Of a stretch of 64,000 nucleotides of DNA, positions 1-62,878 are shown piece by piece. Under the pieces are notes generated by a model that saw nothing but the letters and a program-made list of their open reading frames with translations, searched no databases and was not told where the DNA came from. Source of the DNA: Mycobacterium florentinum (lineage in GTDB: Bacteria; Actinomycetota; Actinomycetes; Mycobacteriales; Mycobacteriaceae); contig NZ_AP022576.1 of assembly GCF_010730355.1 (NCBI RefSeq), positions 3,658,001 through 3,722,000 of the forward strand, written 5' to 3'. The position numbers and the translations under genes were made by a program. Position 1 is the first letter of the stretch, and each line of letters starts with the position of its first letter.

Positions 1-248
1 GTCAGCGCACGGGCCTGCGCCCGGTCGCGGTGAGCGCCGGCGATGACGCCCGCGGCCGCGGCGTCCGTGCGGGCCGCCGCGCGCAGCAGTTGGTGGCTGC
101 GGCTCACTGCGGACCGGTAATTATCTTGTTCCACAATGCTATTCAGCGTCAGGGTCGGCACGACAGGTGCATCCAGCGGCGGCGGCCGAGTAGCCCCGGC
201 GAACAACTGATGCGCGCGGCTCAACGCCTCGATATCGCTTTCGGTCAT
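1..248 (-). CDS. 5' part of a gene following the HTH regulator (Rv0024-like position)
   Basis: An open frame begins at an ATG (248-246) and runs off the window edge without a stop, giving 82 codons. It begins MTESDIEALSRAHQLFAG and continues as an Ala/Arg-rich helical stretch. The ATG overlaps the stop of the upstream regulator by 4 bp, so the two are probably co-transcribed and translationally coupled. In M. tuberculosis the gene after Rv0023 is Rv0024, an NlpC/P60-type peptidoglycan hydrolase; identity here is inferred only from that order, since the catalytic part would lie outside the window. No signal peptide is visible in the part seen. Confidence 0.6.
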   Translation of the reverse strand, partial: MTESDIEALSRAHQLFAGATRPPPLDAPVVPTLTLNSIVEQDNYRSAVSRSHQLLRAAARTDAAAAGVIAGAHRDRAQARAL

Positions 249-1033
249 CGGTCCCCCTCGCCGTCACCCTGGTCGGTGCCGTCTTGACGCGCCGACCCCA
301 CCGCGTCGGTGAACGCGCGAACGCGGGGGAGTACCCCGGCCGGGATCACCCCGCGATTGCGGATGTCCCACATCTCGTCACTGCTCACCCCGAGCAGCGC
401 GGCGATGATCGCGTCCGGCAGTGACGACTGCGCGCAGGCCCGGTCGAACCGCGCGCTCAAACTGGTCGGCATCCGCTTCAGCAGCGCGCTGCGCGTTTCC
501 TCGAGGGCTTGCAGATGCTCCATCAGCCGGTCGGTGGAGTCCGCGCCGGCGTTCACGGCCACCCGCCATGAGCTGGCGGCGAGCATCTCGGCCTTCACGC
601 ACTGCGCGATCACAGAGAGAATATACGTCTCATATTCGTTTGATGTCGTCGCCGGCAGTCGATCGATGACGGATTTGAGCGCATCGAGCTGGGCTTCGGC
701 ATAGCCTTCCAGCACTTCGGTGTCGCTGTGGCGGTCGACAACCACCGCTCCGGCCCGCGGCTGAGACATGGTTTCGGGGTGCTGCGCGGCGATCAATCGG
801 GCCAGCTCGGCATCCGGATCGGCGGCCACCAACAATCGCGAATACGTGCCGGGCGGCAGGCCCAGGCCGTTTTCAACCTTCTGAACTGTGCTTTTGTGGG
901 CCTTGCGGGCGCCGCGCTCCAGATAGCTCAATCCCATGATGCTGACGCCGGTCGCGGCAGCAAGCTCCGCTAGGGACCAGTCGCGCGACTCGCGCAGCGC
1001 CCGGATAGCCGCACCTGCCGATTCACGGCTCAC
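245..1033 (-). CDS. XRE-type HTH transcriptional regulator (Rv0023-like)
   Basis: A 262-residue cytoplasmic protein. Residues about 8-60 form a helix-turn-helix of the Cro/CI (XRE) type: LRESRDWSLAELAAATGVS followed by a recognition helix with SYLERGARK. The remaining 200 residues are a helical domain of unknown role that in the M. tuberculosis relative Rv0023 (about 256 aa) is strongly conserved. It is divergent from whiB5 across a 144-bp gap, the same arrangement as Rv0022c/Rv0023. That gap carries a long imperfect direct repeat which could be its operator. It overlaps the next gene by 4 bp. DNA binding is well supported by the HTH; the regulated targets are not evident from sequence. Confidence 0.85.
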   Translation of the reverse strand: MSRESAGAAIRALRESRDWSLAELAAATGVSIMGLSYLERGARKAHKSTVQKVENGLGLPPGTYSRLLVAADPDAELARLIAAQHPETMSQPRAGAVVVDRHSDTEVLEGYAEAQLDALKSVIDRLPATTSNEYETYILSVIAQCVKAEMLAASSWRVAVNAGADSTDRLMEHLQALEETRSALLKRMPTSLSARFDRACAQSSLPDAIIAALLGVSSDEMWDIRNRGVIPAGVLPRVRAFTDAVGSARQDGTDQGDGEGDR

Positions 1034-5807: not shown

Positions 5808-5815
5808 CGATGCTG

Positions 5816-8418: not shown

Positions 8419-9925
<1,507 letters not shown>

Positions 9926-17943: not shown

Positions 17944-17992
17944 AATCACACGCGTGTGATTTATCCCCACTGTTGATAGCTGATGTGGATAA
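17944..17992. promoter_or_regulatory. 18-bp perfect palindrome with two adjoining DnaA-box-like sites
   Basis: AATCACACGCGTGTGATT at 17944-17961 is a perfect inverted repeat. It runs straight into TTATCCCCA (17961-17969; one mismatch to TTATCCACA) and is followed by TGTGGATAA (17984-17992), the exact complement of the TTATCCACA DnaA box. All three lie between crgA and the Rv0010c-like gene. The elements are directly visible; a role in DnaA titration or in control of the downstream gene is inferred. Confidence 0.55.
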
Positions 17993-18027
17993 CTGCATCG
18001 GCAGTGGTGGGAGGGGCTGAGGACCGC

Positions 18028-18462: not shown

Positions 18463-18469
18463 CCAGAAG

Positions 18470-18486
18470 ACGATCTAGGAGATCGT
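18470..18486. terminator. Hairpin across the convergent stops of Rv0010c-like gene and ppiA
   Basis: ACGATCT (18470-18476), loop AGG, AGATCGT (18480-18486): a perfect 7-bp stem that contains the ppiA stop. No T-run follows on either strand. It may act as a bidirectional U-less terminator or 3' end stabiliser; the structure is real, the role inferred. Confidence 0.35.
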
Positions 18487-19023
18487 GATCGACTCGATGA
18501 CGACCGGGTCGGTCGGACGGTCGTTGCCGTCGGTGGACGTCGTCGCGATCGCGTCGACCACCTTCTGCGACTCGGGCTCGATAACCTCGCCGAAGATGGT
18601 GTGGCGACGGTTCAGGTGCGGCGTCTGTCCGACGGTGATGAAGAACTGCGAGCCGTTGGTGCCCGGGCCCGCGTTGGCCATCGCGAGCAGGTAGGGCTTG
18701 TCGAACTGCAACTCGGGGTGGAACTCGTCGGCGAACTGATAGCCCGGGCCACCGCGACCGGTACCGGTCGGGTCGCCGCCCTGGATCATGAAGCCCTGGA
18801 TCACTCTGTGAAAGACCGCGCCGTCGTAGAACGGACCGGAAGGACTGCCCGACGCGTTTTGGGTCGAGTACTCCTTGGTGCCCTGCGCCAGGCCAACGAA
18901 GTTGGCGACCGTCTTGGGCGCGTGGTTTCCAAACAGGGCGATCTTGATGTCGCCGCGGTTGGTGTGCAGTGTGGCAGTGGCAGTCTGAATCGGGCTGTTG
19001 GTCACGACACCAGAGTCTGCCAT
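18475..19023 (-). CDS. ppiA: PpiA, cyclophilin-type peptidyl-prolyl isomerase
   Basis: 182 residues, identical in length to M. tuberculosis PpiA. Cyclophilin signatures are [19 protein letters not shown] (catalytic Arg, Phe, Gln), [16 protein letters not shown] and [13 protein letters not shown]. It catalyses cis-trans isomerisation of Xaa-Pro bonds; the relative is cytosolic or partly secreted, and there is no signal peptide here. A frame open to 19089 would add 22 residues, but the ATG at 19023 ([20 protein letters not shown]) matches the family start. Confidence 0.96.
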
Positions 19024-19162
19024 TGCCCGCAGACCCGTCCGCACCGGGTGTCGCTCGGGGCAACCGGGTGCCGAAAATCCCACCATCACGCGGCAATAGG
19101 CGCGCCGGTCTTTCTATGGTGGCAGTCTGTAGGTTCCACGGCCCGGCACAGAAAGGCGGCAG

Positions 19163-19603
19163 ATGAGCGCTAAGGCGGAATCCCAGCTGACCCCTAGGCA
19201 GCGACTGTCCCGGGGCCTGACGTACTCGGCGTTGGGACCGGTGGACGTCACCCGCGGTGTCATCGGCCTGGGGGCGCACTCCGTGCAGTCCACCGCCTCG
19301 GAATTGCGCCGCCGCTACCGCCAGGGTCAACTGTCTCGCGAGATCGCAGCGGCGCAGGAGTCGATCGCCCAGGAGCTGGCCGCCGCGCAGGAAGTGGTTT
19401 CGAGCCTGCCGCAGGCGCTGCAGGACGCGCGCAAATCCCGGCGCCGCCGGGGCAAGCGCCCGTTGCTCGTTGCGGGAGCCGTCGCCGTGGTCGTGCTGGC
19501 CGGCGGCGCGGCCGCGTTCAGCATCGTGCGGCGCTCCACCCGCCGGGACAACCCCGAGCCGTCGCCGCGGCCGCCCAGTGTGGACGTGCAGCCACGGCCC
19601 TGA
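19163..19603 (+). CDS. cwsA: CwsA, cell wall synthesis protein
   Basis: 146 residues (145 for Rv0008c, CwsA). The N-terminal part has LTPRQRLSRGLTYSALGPVD; the centre is a coiled coil rich in Ala/Glu/Gln (residues about 55-95); one membrane helix at about 103-123 follows a strongly basic RRRRGK segment, with a short Pro-rich tail. In mycobacteria CwsA interacts with CrgA and Wag31 and influences polar growth and shape; crgA is 1.3 kb away. It is divergent from ppiA. Confidence 0.92.
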   Translation: MSAKAESQLTPRQRLSRGLTYSALGPVDVTRGVIGLGAHSVQSTASELRRRYRQGQLSREIAAAQESIAQELAAAQEVVSSLPQALQDARKSRRRRGKRPLLVAGAVAVVVLAGGAAAFSIVRRSTRRDNPEPSPRPPSVDVQPRP

Positions 19604-19744
19604 CGCCGGCCCGGCAGTAGGCCGCAAATTTCACCAATTGCACTGCGGCCATTCGCCATCCGTTGTATCGCGCTACCTAGCAGCGCTGTCTGGATCGCCT
19701 TACAGTTGCGGCCACGGGGGCCGAAATGAACGGAGCGGTCAATT

Positions 19745-19861
19745 ATGTCTCGTCTGACGAAGAAGGCGATCCTGGGTGCGGTCCTGATCAGCGCGGTGCT
19801 GTCGGTGACGGCGACGGGATGCGCCGGCGCGCCGGCACCGACGCAAATCACCACCCAATAG
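19745..19861 (+). CDS. 38-residue lipoprotein-like small protein
   Basis: ATG at 19745 to TAG at 19861. The product has a positively charged start (MSRLTKKA), a hydrophobic stretch ILGAVLISAVLSVTATG and then Cys25 followed by AGAPAPTQITTQ. This is a signal peptide with a passable lipobox (ATGC), leaving a mature lipopeptide of only about 14 residues. GGAG at 19732-19735 gives a ribosome site 9 bp away. No similar gene is at this place in M. tuberculosis as I recall it. It could instead be a leader peptide or a decayed lipoprotein gene. Confidence 0.5.
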   Translation: MSRLTKKAILGAVLISAVLSVTATGCAGAPAPTQITTQ

Positions 19862-20021
19862 GGCCGATCGCCGGGGGCCGGCACCGAGCGTCGCACGTCA
19901 TCTCAGGTCGGCGAAACACTTGTGCGGCTGAGGAACTCACCACAGCCGTCTGGGTCGATTTCACCTCGCGGCCGTAGTTCTCGCCGTAATATCGTAGCCC
20001 GCAAGGAAAGGTTGTGCGCCC

Positions 20022-22086: not shown

Positions 22087-24606
<2,520 letters not shown>

Positions 24607-24647
24607 GTAGTCCTCGTTGGTCGATCAACGGTGGCCGGTCTGATTGC

Positions 24648-27067
<2,420 letters not shown>

Positions 27068-31612: not shown

Positions 31613-33136
31613 TCAGCGCTTGGAGCGCTGACGGATGCGAGTGGTGAGTTCTTTGACGTGATCGAAGACCTCACGCCGCTCGGCCATCTCGGACAAGATC
31701 TTTCGTTGCGCGTACATGACCGTGGTGTGGTCCCGGCCGAACGCCTGGCCGATCTTCGGGAGTGACAGATCGGTGAGCTCGCGACACAGGTACATCGCGA
31801 TCTGGCGCGACTGAGCCAGCGCCCGGGTCTTGCCGGGCCCGCGTAACTCTTCGACCGTGGTGTCGAAGTATTCGGCGGTGGCGGCCATGATGGTCGCCGC
31901 GCTGATTTGCATGGTGCTGGCATCGGCGATCAGGTCGCGCAGCACGATCTCGGCCAGCGACTTGTCGATCGGCGTCTTGTTCAGCGAGGCGAACGCGGTG
32001 ACGCGGATCAGGGCTCCCTCGAGCTCGCGGATGTTGCGTTCAATGCTGCTGGCGATGAGCTCGAGGACATCGTCGGGTACCGCGAGTCGTTCCATCTGTG
32101 CTTTCTTGCGCAGAATCGCGATACGGGTTTCCAGTTCGGGCGGCTGGACGTCGGTGATCAGGCCCCACTCGAACCGGGTTCGCAGCCGGTCTTCCAGGGT
32201 GGCGAGTTGTTTGGGTGGCCGGTCCGACGAGATGACGATCTGCTTGTTGGCGTTGTGCAGCGTGTTGAAGGTGTGGAAGAACTCTTCCTGGATGCCTTCT
32301 TTGCCCTCGATGAACTGAATGTCATCGACCAGCAGCACATCGACGTCGCGGTAGCTGCGCTTGAACGCGACCTTGCGATCGTCGCGAAGCGAGTTGATGA
32401 AGTCGTTGGTGAATTCCTCGGTGGACACGTACTTGACGCGCATGCCAGGGAAGAGCCGCTGCGCGTAATTGCCTGCGGCATGCAACAAGTGGGTCTTGCC
32501 CAACCCGGACTCGCCCCAGATGAAAAGGGGGTTGTAGGCGCGGGCCGGCGCTTCGGCGATGGCCAGGGCCGCGGCATGGGCAAACCGATTCGAGGCGCCG
32601 ATGACGAAAGTTTCGAAGGTGTAGCGCCGGTTGAGGCTGGTTCCGCCGGCGGCCGCGGCGGCGTCGTTGCTGTGCGGCCGTTCGGCGAAGTAGTTGGGCC
32701 AGTTCTGCTCGACGCCGATCGCTTCACCGTTTTCGTCGGCCTCGTCAGCGTCACTTGACGTTTCTAGCCCGACGTCATCGGTGAAGGTGTCGCCTTGCGG
32801 AATAGGGGCGTCGTCCGCGTCGTCGGCGGGCGGAGCGATGCGCACTCCCAGTTGAATCTGTTGGCCGAGCCGTCGGCTCAGCGCATCCGTGATCGGGGTG
32901 CGCAGATGCCGCTCGATCTCGTTCTGCACAAAACTGCTCGGCACCGACAGCAGGGCGAAGCCCTCGACGATGGTCAGCGGCTGAACAAGATTGAGCCACG
33001 CGCGCTGCTGCGGGGTGAGCGGGGTGACAAGAGTCGTGCGATTACCGGGGGCACCGTCCGTGTCGGAATCGCCGTTGAGTTCAGAGACGACCGCATTCCA
33101 CACTGTCGTGAAACCAGAACCGGGGTCATCGGTCAA
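31613..33136 (-). CDS. dnaA: DnaA, replication initiator
   Basis: 507 residues from a TTG start at 33136, the same start and length as M. tuberculosis DnaA (reading [16 protein letters not shown]). GGGAG lies about 9 bp upstream of that TTG, while the upstream ATGs at 33160 and 33190 have no ribosome site, so TTG is preferred. AAA+ features are Walker [11 protein letters not shown], Walker [15 protein letters not shown], and the initiator-specific motif; the C-terminal domain IV has [14 protein letters not shown] for DnaA-box binding. It opens oriC, which lies just past its 3' end. Confidence 0.97.
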
Positions 33137-33190
33137 CGACGCATCTCCCTGGTCCGACATCGAGGCGCAATCATGCTGGCGACAAAGCAA

Positions 33191-35811: not shown

Positions 35812-38215
<2,404 letters not shown>

Positions 38216-38238
38216 TCACCATCCGTGAAGGGACGACA

Positions 38239-39222
38239 ATGACGCAGCCGTCACGCAGGAAGGGCGGCCTCGGCCGAGGCCTGGCTTCCCTGATTCCGAC
38301 CGGCCCCGCCGAGGGCGACACGGGACCCGCGACCCTTGGTCCCCGCATGGGCGACGCGGCCGCCGATGTGCTGATCGGCGGGCCTGCGCAGGCCACCAAC
38401 GAAATGGGTGCGGTGTACCGCGAGATCTCGCCGTCCGACATCGAGCCTAACCCGCGTCAGCCGCGCCAGGTGTTCGACGACGAGGCGCTGGCCGAGCTGG
38501 TGCACTCGATCCGCGAGTTCGGTCTGTTGCAGCCCATCGTGGTGCGCGCGGTCACCCCGTCACCGGGCGGCGCGCGCTACCAGATCGTGATGGGGGAGCG
38601 GCGCTGGCGGGCCGCCCAGGAGGCGCAGCTGGCCACCCTCCCGGCCATCGTGCGGGAGACGACCGACGACAACCTATTACGAGACGCCCTCCTGGAGAAC
38701 ATCCACCGGGCACAGCTGAACCCGTTGGAAGAAGCGGCGGCATACCAGCAGTTGCTCGATGAGTTCGGCGTCACCCACGACGAACTGGCCTCGCGGATCG
38801 GCCGGTCGCGGCCACTGATCTCCAACATGATCCGGTTGCTCAAACTGCCGATCGCCGTGCAGCGCAGAGTGGCGGCCGGCGTGCTGTCCGCCGGCCACGC
38901 CCGGGCGCTGCTGTCGCTGGAGTCGGGCCCGGAGGCGCAGGAAGAGTTGGCGAGCCGGATCGTCGCGGAGGGTCTGTCGGTGCGCGCCACCGAGGAGGCC
39001 GTGACACTGGCCAACCGTGGCGACGCGGCGGCCCCGACACCACAGCGCCGCAAGCCGATCCAGATGCCCGGTCTGCAAGACGTCGCCGATCGGCTGTCGA
39101 ATGCGTTCGATACCCGGGTGACGGTCAGTCTGGGCAAGCGCAAAGGGAGGATCGTCGTCGAGTTCGCCTCGGTCGAGGATCTACAGCGAATTATCGACAC
39201 CATGACCCCGCCCAAGGCATGA
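38239..39222 (+). CDS. parB: ParB centromere-binding CTPase
   Basis: 327 residues (344 in M. tuberculosis). The N-terminal CTP-binding domain has [19 protein letters not shown], the [11 protein letters not shown] motif and [19 protein letters not shown]; the HTH follows with [20 protein letters not shown]; a C-terminal dimerisation domain ends the protein. It binds parS, slides as a clamp and recruits SMC. It begins 23 bp after parA with AAGGGAC as the ribosome site. Confidence 0.97.
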
Positions 39223-53586: not shown

Positions 53587-53651
53587 CGTGGTGTTTTGCG
53601 CCTACCACGAGTGGGTAAATCAACGCCTGTGCAGCAGGCAAAAGAACTGAA

Positions 53652-53679
53652 GTGACAGACCCCGATGCCTGTCTACACT
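53652..53679 (+). promoter_or_regulatory. Candidate sigma-A-type promoter of the esxD operon
   Basis: GTGACA (53652-53657; five of six to TTGACA), a 16-bp spacer, and TACACT (53674-53679; TANNNT). The start would be near 53686, about 45 bp before esxD. It suggests the truncated ESX-2 cluster still has its own promoter. Confidence 0.5.
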
Positions 53680-53731
53680 CTTATCAATATCCAGGTCGGG
53701 GAGGCCTAGGGAAATCGAAGGGGAGAAACAC

Positions 53732-54055
53732 ATGCCAAGCTCAACCGTTGTCACACCGGAACTGCTGCGCGCTTCGAAGCAAAAGATCGAAGCGCGACTG
53801 CAAGAGGCGGCCGCAATCGCCAATCAGTACTTGAGCGGCCACGAGAACATCGTCAGCGCCACCGGGTGGGCCGGGCAGGCCGGATCCACATCGCTGAACA
53901 CAGCGGGCCAGATTGCGCATGACCTGCAGCAGATCATGACCGGCGGTAACCGATTGGCTCACGGCCTCGGTCAGACGGCCACCCTGATGGAGCACCACGA
54001 GGCCGATTCAGCCCACAGCCTCAATGGCGTGTTCGGCGGAGTTCAGTCCACCTAA
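53732..54055 (+). CDS. esxD: EsxD, WXG100-family protein of ESX-2
   Basis: 107 residues, as M. tuberculosis EsxD. Two amphipathic helices are joined by a turn with GWAG (in SATGWAGQAG, the W-x-G site, about residues 46-49). The start VTPELLRASKQKIEARLQ and the end HEADSAHSLNGVFGGVQS match the EsxD type rather than EsxF. It probably forms a heterodimer with the next product and is secreted by ESX-2. GGGGAGAAA precedes the ATG. In relatives eccB2, eccC2, PE36 and PPE69 come before it; here they do not. Confidence 0.93.
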   Translation: MPSSTVVTPELLRASKQKIEARLQEAAAIANQYLSGHENIVSATGWAGQAGSTSLNTAGQIAHDLQQIMTGGNRLAHGLGQTATLMEHHEADSAHSLNGVFGGVQST

Positions 54056-54098
54056 GCCCGCAATCCCAACAGCTTATTTACCGTAAGGAATAACGAAC

Positions 54099-54389
54099 AT
54101 GTCAGACCACATTGTTTACAACCACGCAGCGGTCAGCGGCCTCACCGGCGACATCGCGTCGCAGGCGGCGCAGCTGATGGAAATCCACGACGACGTTCTC
54201 CACATCACGCAGTCGTTGGCCGATTTCTTTCAGGGTCACGGCGCCACAACCTTTTTCGACGCGCAACAGCAGATGCTGCACGGGCTGCAGGACATGATCC
54301 AGACCGTCAGCCTGCACGGGCACACCGTGGGCAATGTGCACGAGGCTGCGATCATTGCGGACCAGAACACATCTCTCTTTTTCGCGTAG
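54099..54389 (+). CDS. esxC: EsxC, WXG100-family protein of ESX-2
   Basis: 96 residues (95 in M. tuberculosis). The start is MSDHIVYNHAAVSGLTGDI and the helical hairpin carries FFQGHGATTFFDAQQQMLHG, in which the usual W-x-G is replaced by a G-H-G turn, as in the EsxC relative. It pairs with EsxD. AAGGAATAA lies before the ATG, 43 bp after esxD. Confidence 0.93.
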   Translation: MSDHIVYNHAAVSGLTGDIASQAAQLMEIHDDVLHITQSLADFFQGHGATTFFDAQQQMLHGLQDMIQTVSLHGHTVGNVHEAAIIADQNTSLFFA

Positions 54390-54447
54390 ACCCGGCTTGG
54401 CGGGGCGCACCTAGCGTGCGCCCCGCACTTGGCTCTAAGGGAAGACC

Positions 54448-55281
54448 GTGCTTACCACCTCTCTAGAAGGCCTCTGGGTCCTTCAGGTACTTACGGGCAT
54501 CGAGGTCCTGGCTCCCGAGATGGGGCTGCGGCCGCATTTGCCCAGCGTCGAGCCCAAGCACAAGGCGCTGGCCCACCCGGTGACCGCGGAACTGCGGGCC
54601 GCGGGGGCCATCGACGAAACCGACTCCGTCGACGGCGCGATCGTCGAATGGCTGACCGTGCTGTCGCGCCGCGACATCGGGCTGCTGGTGCACTTCCGCC
54701 TGGCTGACGACGGCGAACCGGCGCGCGCCCTGCTCGCGAGGTTCGCGCACTGGTGGGTCGCCATCGAGCGATCGGGAGAGTTGGTCCGGATCAGCGGCGC
54801 GGGCATCGCGGACAACGAGGGCACGGCCAGCGCGGCGCTCAACGCGCAGATCGAACGTCTTTGTGGCGCAAACGATCCCGCACCCTTGCGTCCGGTCACG
54901 CTGGACGCCGATGCCATGCGTGCCGCCGCCACCGACCAGGCAGCGCTGCACGAGTTTCTGGGCAATCAAGGGCTCGACGCCGATCAGGTGCACATGCTGA
55001 AACTGGCTACCGATCCCGGTCGCTCGGCCCAGGCGTCGATCGTCGCGCTCCAGTCCGGCGTGGAAACCGGGTCGCCCACCCGGACCCATTTCGAACCGGG
55101 CGCGGTAACGATCATCGATACGCCGGAAGGTCGTGTAGTCGCCGAGCAGGTTTCGTCCGGCGGCACGAAGTGGATGATCGTCGCGCCGGGGACCAAGAGC
55201 AACATCGGTACCGCAATCAACCATATGGTGCGGCGGTTACCGGCAGAGCGGGAATGGCATTCGTACCGAAAAGTCGTGTAG
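54448..55281 (+). CDS. espG2: EspG2, ESX-2 PE-PPE chaperone
   Basis: 277 residues (276 in M. tuberculosis) from GTG 54448. EspG-family start LTTSLEGLWVLQVLTGIEVL, the central LRAAGAIDETDSVDGAIVEWL and the C-terminal GRVVAEQVSSGGTKWMIVAP are visible. EspG proteins bind the tip of PPE proteins and deliver them to the cognate ESX system. Since the ESX-2-linked PE36/PPE69 pair is missing here, its natural client may be encoded elsewhere or lost. Confidence 0.93.
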   Translation: MLTTSLEGLWVLQVLTGIEVLAPEMGLRPHLPSVEPKHKALAHPVTAELRAAGAIDETDSVDGAIVEWLTVLSRRDIGLLVHFRLADDGEPARALLARFAHWWVAIERSGELVRISGAGIADNEGTASAALNAQIERLCGANDPAPLRPVTLDADAMRAAATDQAALHEFLGNQGLDADQVHMLKLATDPGRSAQASIVALQSGVETGSPTRTHFEPGAVTIIDTPEGRVVAEQVSSGGTKWMIVAPGTKSNIGTAINHMVRRLPAEREWHSYRKVV

Positions 55282-55316
55282 TCGAAAGGCAGTGTCAAAA
55301 TGATAGCATCGGCATC

Positions 55317-56345
55317 GTGACGAGCCCGTGGACGGGCTCATCCAATTCTCCGGAACAGGGCGGACCGACTCGCCGAGAAGCGCCCGCCGCGCAGTACCAA
55401 AATCAAGACTCAGTATCCGGAACATTACGCATTTCCGATATGGTCGCCCCGCGCAAAATTCCGCCGGGCGGCGGCTGGCGCAAATTCCTTTATCAGGTGT
55501 CGGGCCACGTCATCAACTTCGGCGAATCGCCGTCGGAGAGACACTATCGCGAATTGCAGGAGCGCATCCGACGGCATATCCGCAAGCAGTACGTGGTCGG
55601 AGTCGTCTCGGGAAAGGGCGGCGTCGGTAAGACCACGATGACCGCCTGCATCGGTGCGGTATTCCGGGAGTGCCGGCCCGAGAACGTCGTCGCGATCGAC
55701 GCCGCCCCAGGCTTCGGCACGCTGGCCGGCCGGATCGACGAATCCCCGCCGGGTGACTACGCGGCCGTCCTCAATGACACCGATGTGCAGGGCTACGCGG
55801 ACATCCGAGAACACTTGGGGCAGAACAGCCTTGGACTCGACGTGCTGGCCGGCAACCGCGCGTCGGATCAGCCGCGGCCGCTGGTGGCCTCGATGTTCTC
55901 CGGAGTGCTGGCGCGGCTGCGGCGCACCCACACCGTGATCGTGGTGGATACCTCCGACGACCTCGAGCACCCCGTGATGAAGGCGGTGCTCGACGCGTGC
56001 GACACCCTGGTGTTCGTTTCCGGTCTCACCGCCGACACCTCGTTGCCGGTGACCCGTGCGATCGACTTGCTGCGCTCAATGGGCTACCACGAGCTGGTGT
56101 CTCGCAGCATGGTCATCCTGAACGATAGTCGCGACAAGTACGACGGGGAGTCGCGCACTTATCTCACCGAGCGCTTCGCACAATCGGGCGCAACGGTCGA
56201 ATTCATGCCGTATGACCCATTCCTCGCAAAAGGCGGGATTATCGATACCCGGCATGAGCTGAAGAATAAAACCCGCCTGCGCATATTCGAAATCACCGCG
56301 GCATTGGCCGACAAATACATTCCAGATGCGGACAGGCCGCGTTAA
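55317..56345 (+). CDS. MinD/ParA-like ATPase of the ESX-2 locus (Rv3888c-like)
   Basis: 342 residues (341 in Rv3888c) from GTG 55317; the frame is open far upstream inside espG2. A disordered N-terminal 40 residues precedes RISDMVAPRKIPPGGGWRKF; the SIMIBI-class P-loop is VVSGKGGVGKTTMTACIGAV, with DAAPGFGTLAG as Walker A' and TVIVVDTSDDLEHPVM as Walker B. Related to the ESX-associated EspI-type ATPases, with a role perhaps in placing or energising secretion. It overlaps eccD2 by one base (TAATG). Confidence 0.93.
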   Translation: MTSPWTGSSNSPEQGGPTRREAPAAQYQNQDSVSGTLRISDMVAPRKIPPGGGWRKFLYQVSGHVINFGESPSERHYRELQERIRRHIRKQYVVGVVSGKGGVGKTTMTACIGAVFRECRPENVVAIDAAPGFGTLAGRIDESPPGDYAAVLNDTDVQGYADIREHLGQNSLGLDVLAGNRASDQPRPLVASMFSGVLARLRRTHTVIVVDTSDDLEHPVMKAVLDACDTLVFVSGLTADTSLPVTRAIDLLRSMGYHELVSRSMVILNDSRDKYDGESRTYLTERFAQSGATVEFMPYDPFLAKGGIIDTRHELKNKTRLRIFEITAALADKYIPDADRPR

Positions 56346-57838
56346 TGACCCCGTACGTGGGTAAGGTTTCGTTTCCAGCCCGATGTGCGGTCGCGGTGGT
56401 GTGTGGAGAACACCTGGTTTCGCAGGTGTACCCGGCCTCGGTGCCCATCGAGGCGTTCATCGACAACGTCGTCGAGCTGCTCAACGAGGAACTCAAACGC
56501 CGGGGCTTCACCGGACTCGAGCCCGGCGTCGGATACGAACTCCAGAAGGCCAACGGCGTCCGGCTCGACGTCACCAAGACGTTCGACGAACTCGGCGTCG
56601 AAGACGGCGCCACACTCACCCTGGTTCCCGCGGTGGCGGGCGAATCGTTCGAGCCGCAATACGAGTCGTTGTCCACCGGTCTGGCCCGGGTCGGGAAGGG
56701 CCTGTTCGAGCCGGTGACGCTGCAAACCGCGGCGCACACCGCGTTGGTGATCCTGGCGATGGTCTCCCTAACCCTGATGGGACTGGCTGTGCGCCAACGC
56801 TTCTCGACTGACTCCCTGACGCCCACCATCGTGACCGGCGTGGCCGGCCTGCTGATCGCCGGTGGTGTGACCACGGTGTGGCGTTGGTGGCCGGGTCGCG
56901 TCGACATGGTCGACGGGCTCGGCTGGATTGCGGTACCGCTGCTCACGGTCAGCCTCGCGTCCGGCGCGCCCGGGCATGTCGGGGCCGCGCACGCGTTCAT
57001 CGCGGCCCTGACCGGTGCGGTATTGACCTGCGGAATCACCTCCGCGACAGGGCGTCACGCCAATGTGGCGGCGACAGTGGTGACCGTGCTGGGACTGGGT
57101 GGCGCGGCCGCCGCGGCCCGGATGTGGTGGCCGGTGCCGGCGCAATGGCTGGGAATGTGCACCCTTGTCGCCCTGCTACTGCTGCTGACCATGGCCCCGA
57201 CGATCGCGTTGTGGGTCGCGCGGATCCGCCCGCCGTACTTCGGGTCGATCACCGGCCGCGATTTGTTCCGGCGCAGCGCGGGTCTGCCGGCCGACGCGGT
57301 GTCGCCCGTCGAGGAGGGCGCCGACGAGGAAGCCAATTCCGATACCACTGCGCGCGGTGCCCAGATCGCGCTCGCGGCGGTCCACGCCAACAACGTCCTG
57401 ACCGGGATCTGTGCGGGCGCTGGCCTGGCCCTTCCCCTCGCGGTGTGGGCCACGCTGATGCCGGGCCAGGACCGCGGCATGCCGGCCGCCGCGCTGGCCG
57501 GACTGTTCGTGGTGATCTTCATCAGCCGGGGGCGGGCATTCGCCGACAAGCGGCAGGCGATCGCCCTGGTGTGCGGCGCGGCGGCGGCGTTGTGTGTCGG
57601 GGTCCTGAAATACGTTGTGCACGAGCCGACTTCATCGGGCTACGGCGTGCTATGGGGAGCATTGGTACTGGCCGTCTTCGGCGGGGCCGGTCTGCTGGCC
57701 GCCCTGCTGGTGCCGATCACCCGGTTCACCCCGCTGGTGCGGATGACCGCCGAATGGGTGGAGATAGCGGCGATCATCGCGGCCCTGCCGCTGGCCGCAT
57801 GGATCGGCGGATTGTTCACCTGGGTGCGCATGCGATGA
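56345..57838 (+). CDS. eccD2: EccD2, ESX-2 membrane channel component
   Basis: 497 residues (509 in M. tuberculosis). The N-terminal 100 residues form the cytosolic ubiquitin-like domain (VIDNVVELLNEELKRRGFTG region), followed by about 11 membrane helices starting near residue 125 (ALVILAMVSLTLMGLAV) and ending at AAWIGGLFTWVRM. EccD dimers surround the EccB/EccC core in ESX structures. Coupled to the previous gene by TAATG and to mycP2 by a 4-bp overlap. Confidence 0.95.
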   Translation: MTPYVGKVSFPARCAVAVVCGEHLVSQVYPASVPIEAFIDNVVELLNEELKRRGFTGLEPGVGYELQKANGVRLDVTKTFDELGVEDGATLTLVPAVAGESFEPQYESLSTGLARVGKGLFEPVTLQTAAHTALVILAMVSLTLMGLAVRQRFSTDSLTPTIVTGVAGLLIAGGVTTVWRWWPGRVDMVDGLGWIAVPLLTVSLASGAPGHVGAAHAFIAALTGAVLTCGITSATGRHANVAATVVTVLGLGGAAAAARMWWPVPAQWLGMCTLVALLLLLTMAPTIALWVARIRPPYFGSITGRDLFRRSAGLPADAVSPVEEGADEEANSDTTARGAQIALAAVHANNVLTGICAGAGLALPLAVWATLMPGQDRGMPAAALAGLFVVIFISRGRAFADKRQAIALVCGAAAALCVGVLKYVVHEPTSSGYGVLWGALVLAVFGGAGLLAALLVPITRFTPLVRMTAEWVEIAAIIAALPLAAWIGGLFTWVRMR

Positions 57839-59493
57839 CGCAGACGGCGTTCACCGCTCGCGCACTGACCCGGCGGGTAGCCGCCTTGGCGCTGACGAGC
57901 CTGCTGGTCGTCTTGATAGCGGGTCTTCCCGCAGCACAAGCGATTCCGCCGCCGGTTGTCGATCCCGGCCGGGTACCGGCCGACGGCAAGCCGGCGGCCG
58001 ACCAGCCGATGCGCCAGGCCTTCGCGTGCGCACGAACGATCACCGTGGCCGATCCGAACGTGGCCCTGCCCGCGCCCGGGTTCACGATGCTCAATGTCAG
58101 CAAGGCCTGGCAGTACTCGACCGGGAACGGGGTGCCGGTCGCGGTCATCGACACCGGCATCAATCCCAGTCGGCGGCTGCCGGTGGTCGCGGGCGGCGAC
58201 TACATCATGGGCGGGGACGGACTGAGCGACTGCGACGCGCACGGAACCGTCGTGGCGTCGTTGATCGCCGCTGCGCCGCAAGGAACTCCGATGCCCGCCC
58301 CGATGCCGAGCGCCCCGGCCTTCCCGCCACCGGCGGGCCCACCGCCGACCGATGCGGGTGCGCCGCCGCCCGGCGGACCACCGCCGCCGCCTGCGCCTGC
58401 GCCGCCGCCGTCGCCGGTGACGATCACCCAAACGGTGGCCCCGCCGCCGCCACCGCCCCCACCCGACGCTCCCGCGAACGGGCCTGGGGACCCGGCGCCC
58501 GGCCAGCCCGACGATCCCGAGGTGCCACCGCCGCCGCCGGGCGCTCCCGACGGCGTCGCCGGCGTCGCCCCGCACGCGACCGTCATCTCCATCCGGCAGT
58601 CCTCGCGCGCGTTCGAGCCGGTGAATCCCGGCGGCGGCGACTTCGAGGGACGCAAGAAGGCCGGCACCATCGCGACACTGGCCAGCGCCATCGTGCATGC
58701 CGCGAACATGGGCGCCAAGGTGATCAATATCAGTGTGACAGCGTGTGTTTCGGCCGCCGACCCGCTGGATCAGGGCGCCATCGGCGCCGCCGTCTGGTAC
58801 GCGGCCACGGTCAAGGACGCGGTGATCGTCGCCGCGGCCGGCAATGACAGCGAAGACGGCTGCGCCCAGAACCCGACGTTCGACCCGCTCAACGCTTCCG
58901 ATCCGCGCGACTGGCATCAGGTCAAGACGGTGTCGTCGCCGTCCTGGTTCTCCGATTACGTGCTGTCGGTGGGTGCGGTCGACAACACCGGCGCACCGAT
59001 CAACAAGAGCCTGGCCGGGCCTTGGGTGGCCGCGGCGGCACCGGGCGTCGGCGTCATGGGGTTGTCCCCGGAAACCGGCGGACCGGCGAATGCCTACCCG
59101 CCGATCCGCCCGGGCGAGAAGAACATGCCGTTCTGGGGAACCAGCTTTTCCGCGGCATACGTCAGCGGGGTGGCCGCCTTGGTGCGGGCCAAGTATCCGG
59201 GACTGTCCGCACACCAGATCATCAACAGGATTCTGCAGACCGCACACAATCCACCCCGCGGAGTCGACAACCAGGTTGGTTACGGCGTGGTCGATCCGGT
59301 GGCCGCACTGACATTCGATGTGCCTCCGGGAGAACGGCTTTCACCGTCGGCCGCGAGCCGCATCGTCCATCCCGCACCGCCGCCGGCGCCACCCGACCAC
59401 CGCGCCCGCAACGTGGCATTGGTCTTTGCCGGCGTGGTGGCGGCGGCCATCGCGGTGGTCTCGTTGATCGTTCGAGCGCGGCGGGAGCGATGA
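57835..59493 (+). CDS. mycP2: MycP2, ESX-2 mycosin protease
   Basis: 552 residues (550 in M. tuberculosis). A signal peptide (to about residue 38) is followed by a subtilisin-type domain with the full catalytic triad: D106 in VAVIDTGI, H136 in DAHGTVVAS, S437 in FWGTSFSAAY. A long Pro-rich insertion (about residues 155-240, rich in PPPPP) is typical of the MycP2 loop. A C-terminal membrane helix (about 525-547, NVALVFAGVVAAAIAVVSLI) anchors it, with RARRER facing the cytoplasm. Mycosins are needed for ESX complex stability. It overlaps eccE2 by 4 bp. Confidence 0.96.
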   Translation: MTQTAFTARALTRRVAALALTSLLVVLIAGLPAAQAIPPPVVDPGRVPADGKPAADQPMRQAFACARTITVADPNVALPAPGFTMLNVSKAWQYSTGNGVPVAVIDTGINPSRRLPVVAGGDYIMGGDGLSDCDAHGTVVASLIAAAPQGTPMPAPMPSAPAFPPPAGPPPTDAGAPPPGGPPPPPAPAPPPSPVTITQTVAPPPPPPPPDAPANGPGDPAPGQPDDPEVPPPPPGAPDGVAGVAPHATVISIRQSSRAFEPVNPGGGDFEGRKKAGTIATLASAIVHAANMGAKVINISVTACVSAADPLDQGAIGAAVWYAATVKDAVIVAAAGNDSEDGCAQNPTFDPLNASDPRDWHQVKTVSSPSWFSDYVLSVGAVDNTGAPINKSLAGPWVAAAAPGVGVMGLSPETGGPANAYPPIRPGEKNMPFWGTSFSAAYVSGVAALVRAKYPGLSAHQIINRILQTAHNPPRGVDNQVGYGVVDPVAALTFDVPPGERLSPSAASRIVHPAPPPAPPDHRARNVALVFAGVVAAAIAVVSLIVRARRER

Positions 59494-61031
59494 CGGCCGC
59501 CACGAAGCTGACGATCATCGTCGCGATCTTCCTCGCCGCCCTCGTCGGATGGGCAGCGGGTGGATACCCCGGTGCGGCAGCGGGTTTGGTGATCGGAATC
59601 GCCGTCGGCGTGATTCGGTGGCGGGGCCAGCCGATCTGGTCCTGGCTGATTCTGTGGTTGCGGCGGCGGCGGCCGATCGCGTGGACCGAGCCGCTCACGG
59701 TGGCCAATGACCGGGCCGGCGGTGGTATCCGCTACCAGGACGGCGTCGCGGTAGCGGCGGTCCAGGTGCTCGGAAAGGCCCATACCCCAACGTTGTTCAC
59801 CGGGTCGACCGCAACCTACACCGACAACTCGTTCGACATCACCGAGCTGATGCCGCTGCTGCACCAGTCCCTCGGCCTCACCCTGGATTCGCTCAGCGTC
59901 GTCACCGCGGGAGCCCGCCGGCGCAACACCGGTGACTACCCGCGCGTGTACGACACGTTGATCGGTACGCCGCCGTATGCAGGCCGGCGTGAAACCTGGC
60001 TCATCGTGCGCATCTCGGCCCTCGACAATGTCGAGGCGCTGCGCGGGCGCACCTCGGTGGGCACCGCGACGCTGGCCGCCGCCCAGCGGATCAGTGCGGC
60101 ACTGCGCCAGCACGGCATACGCGCCAAGGTCGCGACGGCCACCGACATCGTCGAGATGGAACGGCGGCTGGGCCGCTCCGCGCTGGACGCCTCGAATCGG
60201 CGCTGGCGCTCGGTGCGCGGCGACAGCGGTTGGTTGACCACCTATTGGTACCGGCCCGGGGACATCACGTCGGAGAAACTGGCGGAGGCGTGGTCGGCGC
60301 GCGTCGACGGGATCGTGCAGAACGTCACGCTTTTCAGCGACGGCTCCGCGACCGCCACCGTGACCGTGCGCAGCGCCCAACCACCGACGGCGTCGTTGAG
60401 CATGCGGCTGCGGACCCTGCGGGGTGAGCAGGCCCAAGCCGTCGCCGCCAGCCTGTGCGGTCCGTTGCCGCGGCTGCGCGGCATCCGTCGCGGCGCACTG
60501 CGCGGCCCGCTGGTCGTGCCGATCGGACCGTCGGGTGTGCTGCTCGGCAAGGTCGCCGGGGGCAACCGCATGCTGCTGCCGCTCGACGACGCCGGGGAGT
60601 TCAGCCGGGTGCACGTCGCCGCGGAGGACGCGCTGGCCAAGCGGTTCATCATCCGCCTGGCCGGTGCCGGCGAACGGATCACCGTGCACACTCGAAACAT
60701 GCAGCGGTGGGCCAGTGTTCGGATGCCGGACATCGCCGTGACCGATCAGCCGAAGCCGGTGTCGGGCACCACGGTCAGCATCGTCGACGGCAGCATGTCG
60801 CCGGCGCCGCGACCGAACACCCTCATTTCGATCGGAGGGCCGGGCGAGCCCTACCGGGGGACCGCGAATGTGCTGATCACCCAGACGGGTCCCGCGACGG
60901 TCGACGTGATCGCGGCGGAGGGTCACCTGCACACGGTCGAAGTCGAGCTGTTCCGCGCCGAGAATCGATACGTATCGTCGGAACCGATGGCATTGCGAAC
61001 CCCTGATCTCGAAGCGGCGGATACCCCATGA
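59490..61031 (+). CDS. eccE2: EccE2, ESX-2 membrane component
   Basis: 513 residues (537 in M. tuberculosis). Two N-terminal membrane helices (about 5-25 and 29-48, KLTIIVAIFLAALVGWAAGG) are followed by the periplasmic EccE domain with WTEPLTVANDRAGGG, the STATYTDNSFDITELMPLL region and a second half with GVLLGKVAGGNRMLLPL. EccE sits at the edge of the ESX ring and binds MycP. It is coupled on both sides by 4-bp overlaps. Confidence 0.94.
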   Translation: MTAATKLTIIVAIFLAALVGWAAGGYPGAAAGLVIGIAVGVIRWRGQPIWSWLILWLRRRRPIAWTEPLTVANDRAGGGIRYQDGVAVAAVQVLGKAHTPTLFTGSTATYTDNSFDITELMPLLHQSLGLTLDSLSVVTAGARRRNTGDYPRVYDTLIGTPPYAGRRETWLIVRISALDNVEALRGRTSVGTATLAAAQRISAALRQHGIRAKVATATDIVEMERRLGRSALDASNRRWRSVRGDSGWLTTYWYRPGDITSEKLAEAWSARVDGIVQNVTLFSDGSATATVTVRSAQPPTASLSMRLRTLRGEQAQAVAASLCGPLPRLRGIRRGALRGPLVVPIGPSGVLLGKVAGGNRMLLPLDDAGEFSRVHVAAEDALAKRFIIRLAGAGERITVHTRNMQRWASVRMPDIAVTDQPKPVSGTTVSIVDGSMSPAPRPNTLISIGGPGEPYRGTANVLITQTGPATVDVIAAEGHLHTVEVELFRAENRYVSSEPMALRTPDLEAADTP

Positions 61032-62878
61032 CCAGCAGCACGACGCCGGCCGCCGCGCGTAAATATTTCGACGCGGCGATGGCGTTGCTCGACAGCGACG
61101 TCACCGCGGCCGCGGCCCGGTTCCGGGAGGCAACCGAAGTCGACCCGTCGATGGCCGACGCCTGGCTCGGCCGGATCGCCGCCGGTGACGAGGCGTTGTC
61201 GACCGTCGAACAGCTTTACAACTACGGCAGCCGGCTGCACCGGGAGACCAACCGGATCGGGGCGCGCCTGTCGGCACCGATCAAAGCCGGTCCGTATCTG
61301 TCGATTTCGGTGACCGAGGCCTCGCACGCCGGCCTGGCGCTGGCAAGCGCCCTCATCGACGATCGGCAATACGAGAAAGCCGAAGCGCTGCTCGGGGATT
61401 CGACGCTGCTGGATACCTGGGAAAACCACCAGTGGAAGCAGTACATCGAGTCCTACCTGATGTTCGCGACGCAACGGTGGCCGGACGTGATCGCGGTGGC
61501 CGCGGCCATCTTGCCGCCGCAGGCCATCATCATGTCGGCCGTCACCGCGGCCACTTGCACGCTGGCCGCGCACGCCGCCGCGCATCTCGGCCAGGCGCGG
61601 GTCGCGCTGGAATGGACCGACCGCGTCGAGCTGCGCTCCGGGTTCGGTGGGCCGACCGAGACGCGGCGTCAACACCTCGAAACCGTAGTCACCGCAGTCG
61701 ATCCCACCGACTTCCCGTTGATCGCGGCCGACCTTGCTTACGTGCGGGGAATGGCGCATCGCCAGCTCGGCGAGGAGCCCAAGGCGCAGATCTGGTTGTC
61801 CAAAGCCACGATCAACGGAGCATTGATCGAGCCCGCCAAGCAAGCGCTGGCCGATCCCGCGCTGCAACTGGTCGTCACCGATGAGGACGCGATCAGTTCT
61901 CGTAGCAACAAATGGGATGTGACCACCGAGCTGTCGGAGCAGCAGCGACAGGAGGAGGAGCACCAAGAGCGGCGCACCGAACTCCTGCAGGAGGGTCGCG
62001 CGCTGCTCGACAACCAGGTCGGATTGGCCGACGTCAAACGCGCGGTCGCCGAACTGGAAGATCAGATCGAGGTGCGGGCGCTGCGACTGGCGGCGGGGCT
62101 GCCGGTGGCCAACCAGACCAACCACATGCTGTTGGTCGGTCCGCCCGGCACCGGTAAGACCACCACCGCCGAGGCGCTGGGCAAGATCTACGCCGGGCTG
62201 GGCATCGTGCGGCATCCGGAGATCGTCGAAGTCAAGCGGGCCGATTTCTGCGGAGAGCACATCGGCGCATCGGGACCGAAGACCAACGAGCTGATCAACC
62301 GGTCGCTGGGCCGCATCCTGTTCATGGACGAGTTCTATTCGCTGGTCGAACGCCACCAGGACGGTCGGCCGGACATGATCGGCATGGAGGCGGTCAACCA
62401 GCTGCTGGTCGCGCTCGAGGTGCACCGGTTCGACTTCTGCTTCATCGGCGCGGGATACGAGAAGGAAGTCGACGAATTCCTCACCGTGAACCCGGGTCTG
62501 GCGGGCCGGTTCAACCGCAAACTGCGATTCGAGTCCTATACGCCCGACGAGTTGGTGGAAATCGCCGTCCGCTACGGCAAACCGCGTGCCACGGTTCTCG
62601 ATCCCGCGACCGCCGAGGCGCTGAAAGCCGCGTGCGCGACGCTGCGCGGCTATCGTGCGCCCGATGGCCAGCACGGCATCGACGCCATGCATAACGGTCG
62701 GTTCGCGCGCAATGTCGTTGAGCGCGCGGAGCGGCTCCGGGACTCGCGGGTGGCCGCACAGCATCGCGTCGACAAAGGGTCGGTGACGGTGGAGGATCTG
62801 CAAACGCTACGTACCCAGGACGTCGTTGCGGCGGTGAAGGACGCGTGTGCGGAAAAGCATGTGCCGATAGTGCTTTGA
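61028..62878 (+). CDS. eccA2: EccA2, cytosolic AAA+ ATPase of ESX-2
   Basis: 616 residues (619 in M. tuberculosis). The N-terminal half is a TPR-like helical array (AARFREATEVDPSMADAWLG onward to about residue 290); a coiled linker (LSEQQRQEEEHQERRTELLQ) leads to a CbxX/CfqX-type AAA+ domain with Walker A GPPGTGKT at 371-378 and Walker B in RILFMDEFYSL. It recycles EspG from PE/PPE complexes and acts on ESX substrates. It is the last gene of the ESX-2 series. Confidence 0.95.
   Translation: MTSSTTPAAARKYFDAAMALLDSDVTAAAARFREATEVDPSMADAWLGRIAAGDEALSTVEQLYNYGSRLHRETNRIGARLSAPIKAGPYLSISVTEASHAGLALASALIDDRQYEKAEALLGDSTLLDTWENHQWKQYIESYLMFATQRWPDVIAVAAAILPPQAIIMSAVTAATCTLAAHAAAHLGQARVALEWTDRVELRSGFGGPTETRRQHLETVVTAVDPTDFPLIAADLAYVRGMAHRQLGEEPKAQIWLSKATINGALIEPAKQALADPALQLVVTDEDAISSRSNKWDVTTELSEQQRQEEEHQERRTELLQEGRALLDNQVGLADVKRAVAELEDQIEVRALRLAAGLPVANQTNHMLLVGPPGTGKTTTAEALGKIYAGLGIVRHPEIVEVKRADFCGEHIGASGPKTNELINRSLGRILFMDEFYSLVERHQDGRPDMIGMEAVNQLLVALEVHRFDFCFIGAGYEKEVDEFLTVNPGLAGRFNRKLRFESYTPDELVEIAVRYGKPRATVLDPATAEALKAACATLRGYRAPDGQHGIDAMHNGRFARNVVERAERLRDSRVAAQHRVDKGSVTVEDLQTLRTQDVVAAVKDACAEKHVPIVL

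What the first reader, a model, noticed from the sequence alone, without database searches (positions are those of the whole stretch)
53587..62878. ESX-2 cluster lacking eccB2, eccC2, PE36 and PPE69
esxD, esxC, espG2, the MinD-like gene, eccD2, mycP2, eccE2 and eccA2 are all intact and tightly coupled, but the motor ATPase EccC2, EccB2 and the PE/PPE pair that precede esxD in M. tuberculosis are not there; the block esxF/esxE/cpnT and others between Rv3906c and eccB2 is also missing. A secretion system without its own EccC/EccB should be inert, yet no gene left behind is frameshifted and a promoter remains. Either the deletion is recent, the missing genes are elsewhere, or the remaining part works with EccB/EccC of another ESX system. 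The last would be new.
Basis: partly seen in the sequence, partly recalled or inferred. Interest (0 to 1): 0.72.

Follow-up and report, generated by a model that had tools for sequence, protein, structure and literature searches.

The report
Secretion cluster split across replication origin
The genes that seemed to be missing from this mycobacterial secretion cluster are intact about 63,000 bases away on the other side of the replication origin, because an old chromosome inversion, shared by a group of related species, cut the cluster in two without breaking a gene.

Summary
The window holds esxD-esxC-espG2-MinD-like-eccD2-mycP2-eccE2-eccA2 (53732-62878, +) without eccB2, eccC2, PE36 or PPE69. 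They are not deleted: in the same single-contig genome, intact PPE69, PE36, eccC2 and eccB2 lie 9-17 kb left of the window, on the other strand, across oriC. Intact relatives keep the cluster together and Rv3906 beside Rv0036; one inversion across oriC, cut at PPE69|esxD and Rv3906|Rv0036, turns their order into this one. Split genomes are one clade in trees of both halves: 31 of 31 EccD2 rows, 17 of 17 EccC2 rows. Both halves are under purifying selection. A promoter-like element, TGAAGTGACA, precedes esxD in split and unsplit genomes, so the cut spared it. Two papers already describe separated ESX-2 genes, in M. paragordonae and the M. avium complex (passages).

The parts
53587..53647 (.). 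right-hand inversion junction: Rv3906 side joined to esxD side (breakpoint between the Rv3906 stop and the esxD promoter-like element)
   Evidence: intact relatives have Rv3906 next to the Rv0036-like MDMPI gene and esxD next to PPE69; split relatives have Rv3906 next to esxD
53648..53679 (+). conserved promoter-like element of esxD: TGAAGTGACA, 16 bp, TACACT
   Evidence: invariant 10-mer in 16 of 16 aligned upstream regions; 58 of 63 loci with an esxD match among the 69; one match of element plus -10 in this genome
53732..54055 (+). esxD (WXG100)
   Evidence: PF06013, 1.4e-07
54099..54389 (+). esxC (WXG100)
   Evidence: PF06013, 7e-07
54448..55281 (+). espG2 chaperone
   Evidence: PF14011, 1.2e-35
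55317..56345 (+). MinD/CbiA-like ATPase (Rv3888c/EspI-like; start uncertain)
   Evidence: PF01656; GKGGVGKT P-loop
56345..57838 (+). eccD2
   Evidence: TIGR03920, 6.6e-94
57835..59493 (+). mycP2
   Evidence: TIGR03921, 9.1e-108
59490..61031 (+). eccE2
   Evidence: TIGR03923, 1.5e-68
61028..62878 (+). eccA2
   Evidence: TIGR03922, 4e-196
245..1033 (-). HTH regulator heading the other half; that half continues left of the window: NlpC/P60, two DUF4226, EspC-like, DUF2694, DUF5631, eccB2 (genome 3647181-3648686), eccC2 (3643095-3647174), PE36, PPE69
   Evidence: PF01381; order read from L019, L020 and L023
1..248 (-). 5' end of the NlpC/P60 gene of the other half (minus strand), cut by the window edge
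   Evidence: PF00877, 1.6e-21 for the whole gene
31613..33190 (-). dnaA, marking oriC between the two halves (gyrA/gyrB at 22087-26681 on one side, parA/parB at 37094-39222 on the other)
   Evidence: gene order; names by position and recall, not by a family search

Best explanation
This is one complete ESX-2 type VII secretion system encoded in two pieces flanking oriC. An inversion spanning oriC, with ends between PPE69 and esxD and between Rv3906 and the Rv0036-like gene, moved regulator-accessory-eccB2-eccC2-PE36-PPE69 (left half) away from esxD-esxC-espG2-MinD-like-eccD2-mycP2-eccE2-eccA2 (right half). No gene was cut. The right half kept a promoter-like element that already stood in front of esxD before the inversion, so the operon became two transcription units whose products would still assemble into one EccBCDE complex. 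Shown: both halves present, intact and constrained; the single-inversion geometry; one clade in both trees; the element. Inferred: that the element is the promoter, and that the proteins still form one machine.
For: One orphan EccB/EccC pair and one orphan EccD in the same complete genome. Left half reads Rv0037-Rv0036 | PPE69-PE36-eccC2-eccB2-...-HTH, right half pcnA-Rv3906 | esxD-...-eccA2. In G060 and G186 both predicted ancestral junctions are found, PPE69 beside esxD and Rv3906 beside Rv0036; in G083 PPE69 is beside esxD and Rv3906 is followed by the next genes of the same flank, without an Rv0036 or Rv0037 hit. In the fast grower G136 Rv0036 and Rv3906 lie at the facing ends of adjoining 20-kb stretches with no other query gene between. 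In 13 of 13 split genomes (own included) with both halves on one contig, the halves are divergent and 58.1-69.2 kb apart. Split genomes form one clade: EccD2 31 of 31 rows, SH-aLRT 99 (quick tree); EccC2 17 of 17 rows, 100. dN/dS against up to eight relatives is 0.04-0.17 for eccA2-eccE2 and mycP2. TGAAGTGACA precedes esxD in split and unsplit genomes.
Against: No expression, protein or secretion data. The careful EccD2 tree did not finish. The EccC2 and EccD2 trees agree on the split clade but not in every inner group: G010 sits with the szulgai/gordonae side in EccC2 and with the simiae side in EccD2. In the three intact relatives esxC gave no match, and esxD and PPE69 are only about 37-58% identical to ours. 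Some split species have lost or are losing parts: M. gordonae and M. tilburgii have no ESX-2-type eccB2, M. genavense is broken in many genes, G031 has eccC2 in two frames, and eccD2 is in two abutting pieces in M. asiaticum DSM 44297 and M. intermedium (not examined further). So the split system is dispensable in some lineages. Esx, EspG and PPE genes have higher dN/dS (esxC up to 0.26, espG2 up to 0.27, PPE69 up to 0.26). dS nears saturation for the distant pairs.
Confidence: 0.93

Rival explanations
1. The eccB2-eccC2-PE36-PPE69 half was lost and later re-acquired by horizontal transfer, as proposed in print for M. paragordonae.
For: Stated in PMC6616192 (passages read). G006 carries the block while M. 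gordonae CTRI 14-8773 (about 97% identical flanks) lacks it with exactly the junction found in the 85%-identical strain DSM 44160, which would fit loss followed by regain in that one lineage. G010 changes place between the two trees.
Against: EccC2 of all 17 split genomes tested is one clade (100). The accessory block, eccB2, eccC2, PE36 and PPE69 stand in the same order in the intact sister group, and the junctions are those of an inversion. In G006 the flanks match M. gordonae CTRI at 98% in the 50 columns next to both edges of the block, which a regain by homologous recombination would not easily leave.
Confidence: 0.04
2. True deletion, with the remaining half working through EccB/EccC of another ESX system.
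For: In M. gordonae the eccB2-eccC2 half is deleted and seven checked genes of the remaining half are open and constrained.
Against: In the window's own genome eccB2 and eccC2 are present, full length and constrained.
Confidence: 0.01
3. Assembly artefact at the junction.
For: None beyond the general risk.
Against: The same neighbourhood occurs in 20 of the 29 best loci of other genomes and in named species; one plain inversion links the two states.
Confidence: 0.01

Closest known systems
M. paragordonae ESX-2 in two regions (PMC6616192; passages read)
   Same: First part next to ESX-1; second part with pe36, eccC2 and eccB2 far away. Locus tags 300xx and 002xx suggest that they lie on either side of the record's start.
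   Different: That paper treats one species and explains it by lateral transfer; here it is clade-wide, with mapped breakpoints and one inversion.
M. avium complex 'transposition of EccB2 and EccC2' (PMC4791881, passages read); PMC3749206 gives PPE69 = MAH_0168 and EccC2 = MAH_4605 (passages read)
   Same: ESX-2 divided, with the parts far apart.
   Different: My candidate genomes G036, G046, G080 and G100 break between eccC2 and PE36, not PPE69 and esxD, 153-173 kb apart, in another ESX-2 type with about 58% identical EccC2. That they belong to the M. avium complex is inferred.
M. tuberculosis ESX-2, Rv3884c-Rv3895c (range stated in PMC6616192)
   Same: By recall, the same gene families in the same relative order when the two halves here are put end to end.
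   Different: Contiguous there; the type that I take as Mtb-like has EccB2 about 64-66% and EccC2 about 58% identical to these.
ESX-2AN of M. tusciae (PMC4791881, passages read)
   Same: An ESX-2-like cluster outside the M. tuberculosis type, in relatives of M. komossense; L145 (M. komossense) belongs to the type found here.
   Different: The paper places ESX-2AN before both ESX-2 and ESX-5; no M. tusciae sequence was compared here, so whether this type is ESX-2AN is open.

Membership tests
ESX-2 type VII secretion system | EccB, EccC, EccD, EccE, MycP and EccA present | tested here: met
   TIGR03919, TIGR03924/TIGR03925, TIGR03920, TIGR03923, TIGR03921 and TIGR03922 all above their cut-offs
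ESX-2 type VII secretion system | Esx pair, PE/PPE pair, EspG and EspI/MinD-like gene | tested here: met
   WXG100 twice, PPE, EspG, CbiA; PE36 found no Pfam family and rests on its place and on matches between relatives
ESX-2 type VII secretion system | Closer to ESX-2 than to ESX-1, -3, -4 or -5 | tested here: inconclusive
   EccC2 58-61% to the lineages taken as ESX-2, 32-33% to the other four EccCs of its own genome; but no named M. tuberculosis sequence was compared, and ESX-2AN was not tested
ESX-2 type VII secretion system | Single contiguous operon | tested here: not met
   two loci 63 kb apart across oriC; contiguity is usual, not defining for function
ESX-2 type VII secretion system | Secretes EsxC/EsxD through an EccBCDE complex | not testable with these tools
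   needs protein work

The most novel reading that the evidence does not exclude
In M. gordonae the split had a second act: the eccB2-eccC2 half was deleted, and the orphan esxD-eccA2 half has stayed intact under purifying selection, so a secretion half-system may run on EccB/EccC borrowed from another ESX, chromosomal or plasmid-borne. The two strains share the blunt junction although their flanks are only 82-88% alike in the nearest 200 columns; dS between them is 0.51-0.69 in these genes and dN/dS 0.00-0.20, much as in pairs that keep eccB2-eccC2. Against it: if the deletion is younger than the strains' divergence, most of that constraint predates it, and in the close pair G006/CTRI dN/dS is higher for eccE2 (0.23), espG2 (0.25) and eccD2 (0.17).
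Probability: 0.15. Interest if true: 0.75.

Novelty: new member of a known kind. Interest (0 to 1): 0.4.

Why it matters
It warns that a gene cluster that looks gutted in a 64-kb view can be whole across the origin, and it replaces 'deletion' or 'lateral transfer' by one inversion shared by many species. It shows that an ESX core can be encoded as two distant transcription units for a long evolutionary time, and points to a very conserved esxD control element in a system whose function is unknown. M. gordonae then becomes a natural test of whether ESX cores can share EccB/EccC.

Tried and rejected
Deletion of eccB2/eccC2 in this genome: rejected. Two successive inversions or a block transposition, my first model when I compared only with the recalled M. 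tuberculosis order: dropped once G060, G083 and G186 showed that one inversion suffices. Lateral gain of the eccB2 half: disfavoured. Import of the deletion between the two M. gordonae strains: looked for and not seen, since CTRI matches G006 (98%) and not DSM 44160 (88%) in the 50 columns on each side of the junction; recurrent identical deletion and a very precise regain in G006 both remain open. Direct repeats at the deletion ends: none seen by eye. Literature: the 10-mer as a term gave 26 papers, of which the 10 listed have no mycobacterial title; Rv0023/Rv0024/Rv0029 with ESX-2 gave one listing, not read. The Dumas 2016 paper is not held. Rows dropped: the EccD2 tree left out loci whose best EccD2 piece covered under 85% of the protein (among them M. 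genavense, M. intermedium and M. asiaticum DSM 44297), nine duplicate sequences, and L132, identical to L131. In that tree 'contiguous' means PPE69 or eccC2 upstream of esxD, so it includes Mtb-like genomes that are split elsewhere, and M. kyorinense. The EccC2 tree used 37 of the loci in hand; G031 and G076, whose eccC2 is in pieces, were left out. Gene order was mapped with best tblastn pieces, so a missing label is not proof of absence.
Full report
What is in the window. The right end of the window carries pcnA-Rv3906-esxD-esxC-espG2-MinD-like-eccD2-mycP2-eccE2-eccA2 on the plus strand, followed by a mycosin-like gene (the last matches mycP2 stretches of relatives at 38-44%). Names Rv3906, Rv0036, Rv0037, Rv0040, Rv0020 and those of the oriC genes are by position and recall; the ESX families are by model. 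Seven of the eight ESX genes were re-translated and have no internal stop. The window also contains oriC: gyrA, gyrB, recF, dnaN, dnaA, then yidC, parA, parB, trxB.

Where the missing genes are. The genome is one contig of 6,219,859 bases. Model searches found five EccB, five EccC and five EccD. One EccB/EccC pair, at 3643095-3648686 on the minus strand, has no EccD near it; the window's EccD has no EccB/EccC near it. Reading that region gave, in transcription order, an HTH regulator (window 245-1033), NlpC/P60, two DUF4226 genes, an EspC-family gene, DUF2694, DUF5631/5632, a 1056-codon gene without a Pfam match, DUF2710, eccB2, eccC2, PE36 and PPE69. So all parts of an ESX-2 system exist, in two divergent blocks on either side of oriC, with eccB2 and esxD starts 63 kb apart.

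How widespread it is. EsxD of this genome was sought in 198 genomes of the genus; 85 had a match at 1e-10. Of the 30 best loci (own included), 20 have Rv3906 directly upstream of esxD and 9 have PPE69; the thirtieth, G188, is also split, with a kinase-like ORF between Rv3906 and divergent esxD/esxC genes. EccC2 was then sought in 32 genomes, 21 of them split: 19 of the 21 have an ESX-2-type EccC2 (G031 in two frames, G076 broken); G089 and G120 have none. Where both halves are on one contig they are divergent and 58.1-69.2 kb apart in 13 of 13 genomes. A scan of named genomes with an EccD2 alignment gave 69 loci. Named species with Rv3906 before esxD are M. ahvazicum, montefiorense, numidiamassiliense, angelicum, szulgai, gordonae, asiaticum, intermedium, sherrisii, simulans, genavense and tilburgii; several belong, by recall, to the M. 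simiae complex. ESX-2-type eccB2 was found in 19 of 23 handles tried from this group; the four without it are M. gordonae CTRI 14-8773, M. gordonae DSM 44160 twice (G211 and G120 give the same rows) and M. tilburgii.

How it arose. In G060 and G186 the gene order is eccA2-...-esxD-PPE69-PE36-eccC2-eccB2-...-HTH-...-Rv0020-...-oriC-...-pcnA-Rv3906-Rv0036-Rv0037-...-leuS; G083 has the same order but no Rv0036/Rv0037 hit. In these three esxC gave no match, and esxD and PPE69 are far diverged (about 37-58%). Inverting the stretch between PPE69|esxD and Rv3906|Rv0036 gives the order of the window's genome. In the fast grower G136 Rv0036 and Rv3906 lie at the facing ends of adjoining stretches, so that neighbourhood looks older. 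In the EccD2 tree 31 of 31 split rows are one side of a branch (SH-aLRT 99), next to M. fragae, Mycobacterium sp. SM1, G060 and G186 (83 rows, quick method in place of an unfinished careful one). In the EccC2 tree 17 of 17 split rows are one side of a branch (100, 37 rows). Inner groups agree broadly, but G010 changes sides and the order of G143 and G173 differs. On the whole the halves have travelled together since the inversion.

Why it was tolerated. Upstream of esxD, 16 of 16 aligned sequences (12 split, 4 unsplit) share TGAAGTGACA, followed at 16-17 bp by a -10-like hexamer (spacing counted by eye). Among the 69 loci, 63 have an esxD match and 58 of these have the 10-mer within 400 bases upstream, starting 62-96 bases before esxD. 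Absent: M. tilburgii, L152, L161 and L186; one locus is cut short. In this genome the element with its -10 occurs once, and the 10-mer once in the 126 kb examined. In eight Mtb-like loci (L198, L200, L202, L204, L206, L208, L211, L213) it was not found before esxD. Its presence on both sides of the event means that the esxD unit probably had its own promoter before the cut. No RNA evidence exists here.

Selection. Against up to eight relatives, dN/dS is 0.036-0.081 for eccC2, 0.047-0.113 for eccB2, 0.038-0.123 for eccA2, 0.070-0.149 for eccD2, 0.094-0.169 for eccE2 and 0.045-0.132 for mycP2; esxD 0.072-0.143, esxC 0.064-0.264, espG2 0.136-0.272, PPE69 0.117-0.256. Flanking pcnA and mutT4 give 0.097-0.239 (best matched piece only, so mycP2, pcnA and mutT4 are partial or missing in some rows; the MinD-like values are not usable there, because that ORF overlaps espG2).

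Other ESX-2 histories seen on the way. Genomes with a second ESX-2 type (EccC2 about 58% identical; I take it as the M. tuberculosis type because PMC3749206, gives 88.7% homology between M. avium and H37Rv EccC2, and because of gene order) show the HTH...DUF5631 block abutting Rv0036 with no eccB2 there: G029 and G046, and G105 from two adjoining stretches; G195, with no ESX-2 eccB2 match, shows the same. G036, G046, G080 and G100 have ESX-2 divided between eccC2 and PE36, 153-173 kb apart. In G029, G046, G058 and G105 the HTH gene is 85-87% identical to ours although eccB2 is only 64-65%, while nine split-clade genomes with HTH at 82-90% (G010, G023, G045, G064, G113, G116, G143, G173, G188) have 80-91% eccB2. 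I read this as replacement of the ESX-2 core after a shared inversion, leaving the accessory block behind; by recall it corresponds to Rv0023-Rv0029 of M. tuberculosis, which I did not fetch. M. kyorinense E861 shows a third break, between eccC2 and PE36, with recR-like and leuA-like genes near the new junctions (names read from the sequences by recall).

M. gordonae. Aligning G006's left-half region to M. gordonae CTRI 14-8773 and DSM 44160 shows matches 1-4273 and 16769-20000 directly abutting in both: a 12,495-base deletion from the HTH side into PPE69. The junction is the same, while the two strains are 82% and 88% identical in the nearest 200 columns on the two sides. Ten genes were checked: esxD, esxC, espG2, MinD-like, eccD2, eccE2 and eccA2 of the remaining half, and mutT4, pcnA and Rv3906 beside it; none has a stop in its matched piece (95-100% of the length). 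mycP2 is cut by contig ends and was not judged. dN/dS between the strains is 0.00-0.20 for the seven ESX genes, much as in pairs that keep the block; in the close pair G006/CTRI it reaches 0.23-0.25 for eccE2 and espG2. G006 has the block although it is about 97% identical to CTRI; I could not decide between recurrent deletion and regain.

What is known. PMC6616192 (passages read) reports ESX-2 of M. paragordonae in two distant regions and absence of pe36, eccC2 and eccB2 in M. gordonae, and suggests lateral transfer. PMC4791881 (passages read) notes transposition of EccB2 and EccC2 in the M. avium complex, and names an ESX-2AN type that I could not compare. In searches I saw no account of the oriC-spanning inversion, its clade or the esxD element; only listings were seen, except passages of PMC8025370, PMC10619280, PMC3749206, PMC4791881, PMC6616192 and PMC4894912. 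Dumas 2016 could not be read. The finding is therefore mostly ordinary genome rearrangement with a clear history, partly known, plus a sharper open question in M. gordonae.

Noticed in passing
L121 versus L296-L300 (G006 versus M. gordonae CTRI 14-8773 and DSM 44160): Same blunt 12,495-base deletion of HTH-...-eccB2-eccC2-PE36-part of PPE69 in two M. gordonae strains whose nearest flanks are 82-88% alike, while G006 (about 97% like CTRI) keeps the block.
   Followed up: partly
L198-L205 (G046, G036, G080, G100): Second, different division of ESX-2: eccB2-eccC2 and PE36-...-eccA2 153-173 kb apart and divergent; fits a published remark on the M. avium complex.
   Followed up: partly
L127 and L128 (G094, M. 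kyorinense E861): Third break, between eccC2 and PE36, with recR/ybaB-like genes beside eccC2 and leuA/dnaQ-like genes near PE36; looks like a reciprocal inversion, in a draft genome.
   Followed up: partly
L209, L207 with L267, L216, L217: In Mtb-like ESX-2 genomes, and in G195 without an ESX-2 eccB2 match, the HTH-NlpC-DUF4226-EspC-DUF2694-DUF5631 block sits alone next to Rv0036: probably a relic of an earlier ESX-2.
   Followed up: partly
window 53648-53679: TGAAGTGACA element before esxD, nearly invariant in this ESX-2 type across slow and fast growers, not found before esxD in eight Mtb-like loci; regulator unknown.
   Followed up: partly
L145, L164 and others: ESX-2-like clusters of this type in Mycolicibacterium litorale and komossense (fast growers by recall), although PMC4791881 says that ESX-2 occurs only in slow growers.
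   Followed up: no
L108 9105-11722 (G188) and L144: Split relatives with divergent esxD/esxC (55-56% and 47%); in G188 a 690-codon kinase-like ORF lies between Rv3906 and esxD.
   Followed up: no
L130 14678-21491 (M. montefiorense): eccA2 match ends early and is followed by eccB2 in two frames and eccC2: the halves are side by side again in a new order, or the draft is misjoined.
   Followed up: no
L131 and L132 (M. numidiamassiliense): Two identical 21.5-kb copies of the right half in opposite orientation in one contig, also eccB2 twice; likely assembly artefact.
   Followed up: no
L102, L122, L169 (M. genavense); L196 (M. tilburgii); L197 (M. leprae): ESX-2 genes in many broken pieces: the system decays in these lineages.
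   Followed up: no
L023 10081-13251: 1056-codon gene without Pfam match near eccB2; matched in 4 of the 18 left-half loci of split genomes (full length in G110 and G164, pieces in G031 and G076).
   Followed up: no
L023 4095-8174 (eccC2): A P-loop pattern was found in the first and third ATPase domains of this EccC2 type but not in the second (4 of 4 checked), unlike the paralogues tested.
   Followed up: no
L167, L168, L180, L181: ESX-2 loci in metagenome bins labelled Lentisphaerae, Acidobacteria and Bifidobacterium breve: probably mis-binned mycobacterial contigs.
   Followed up: no
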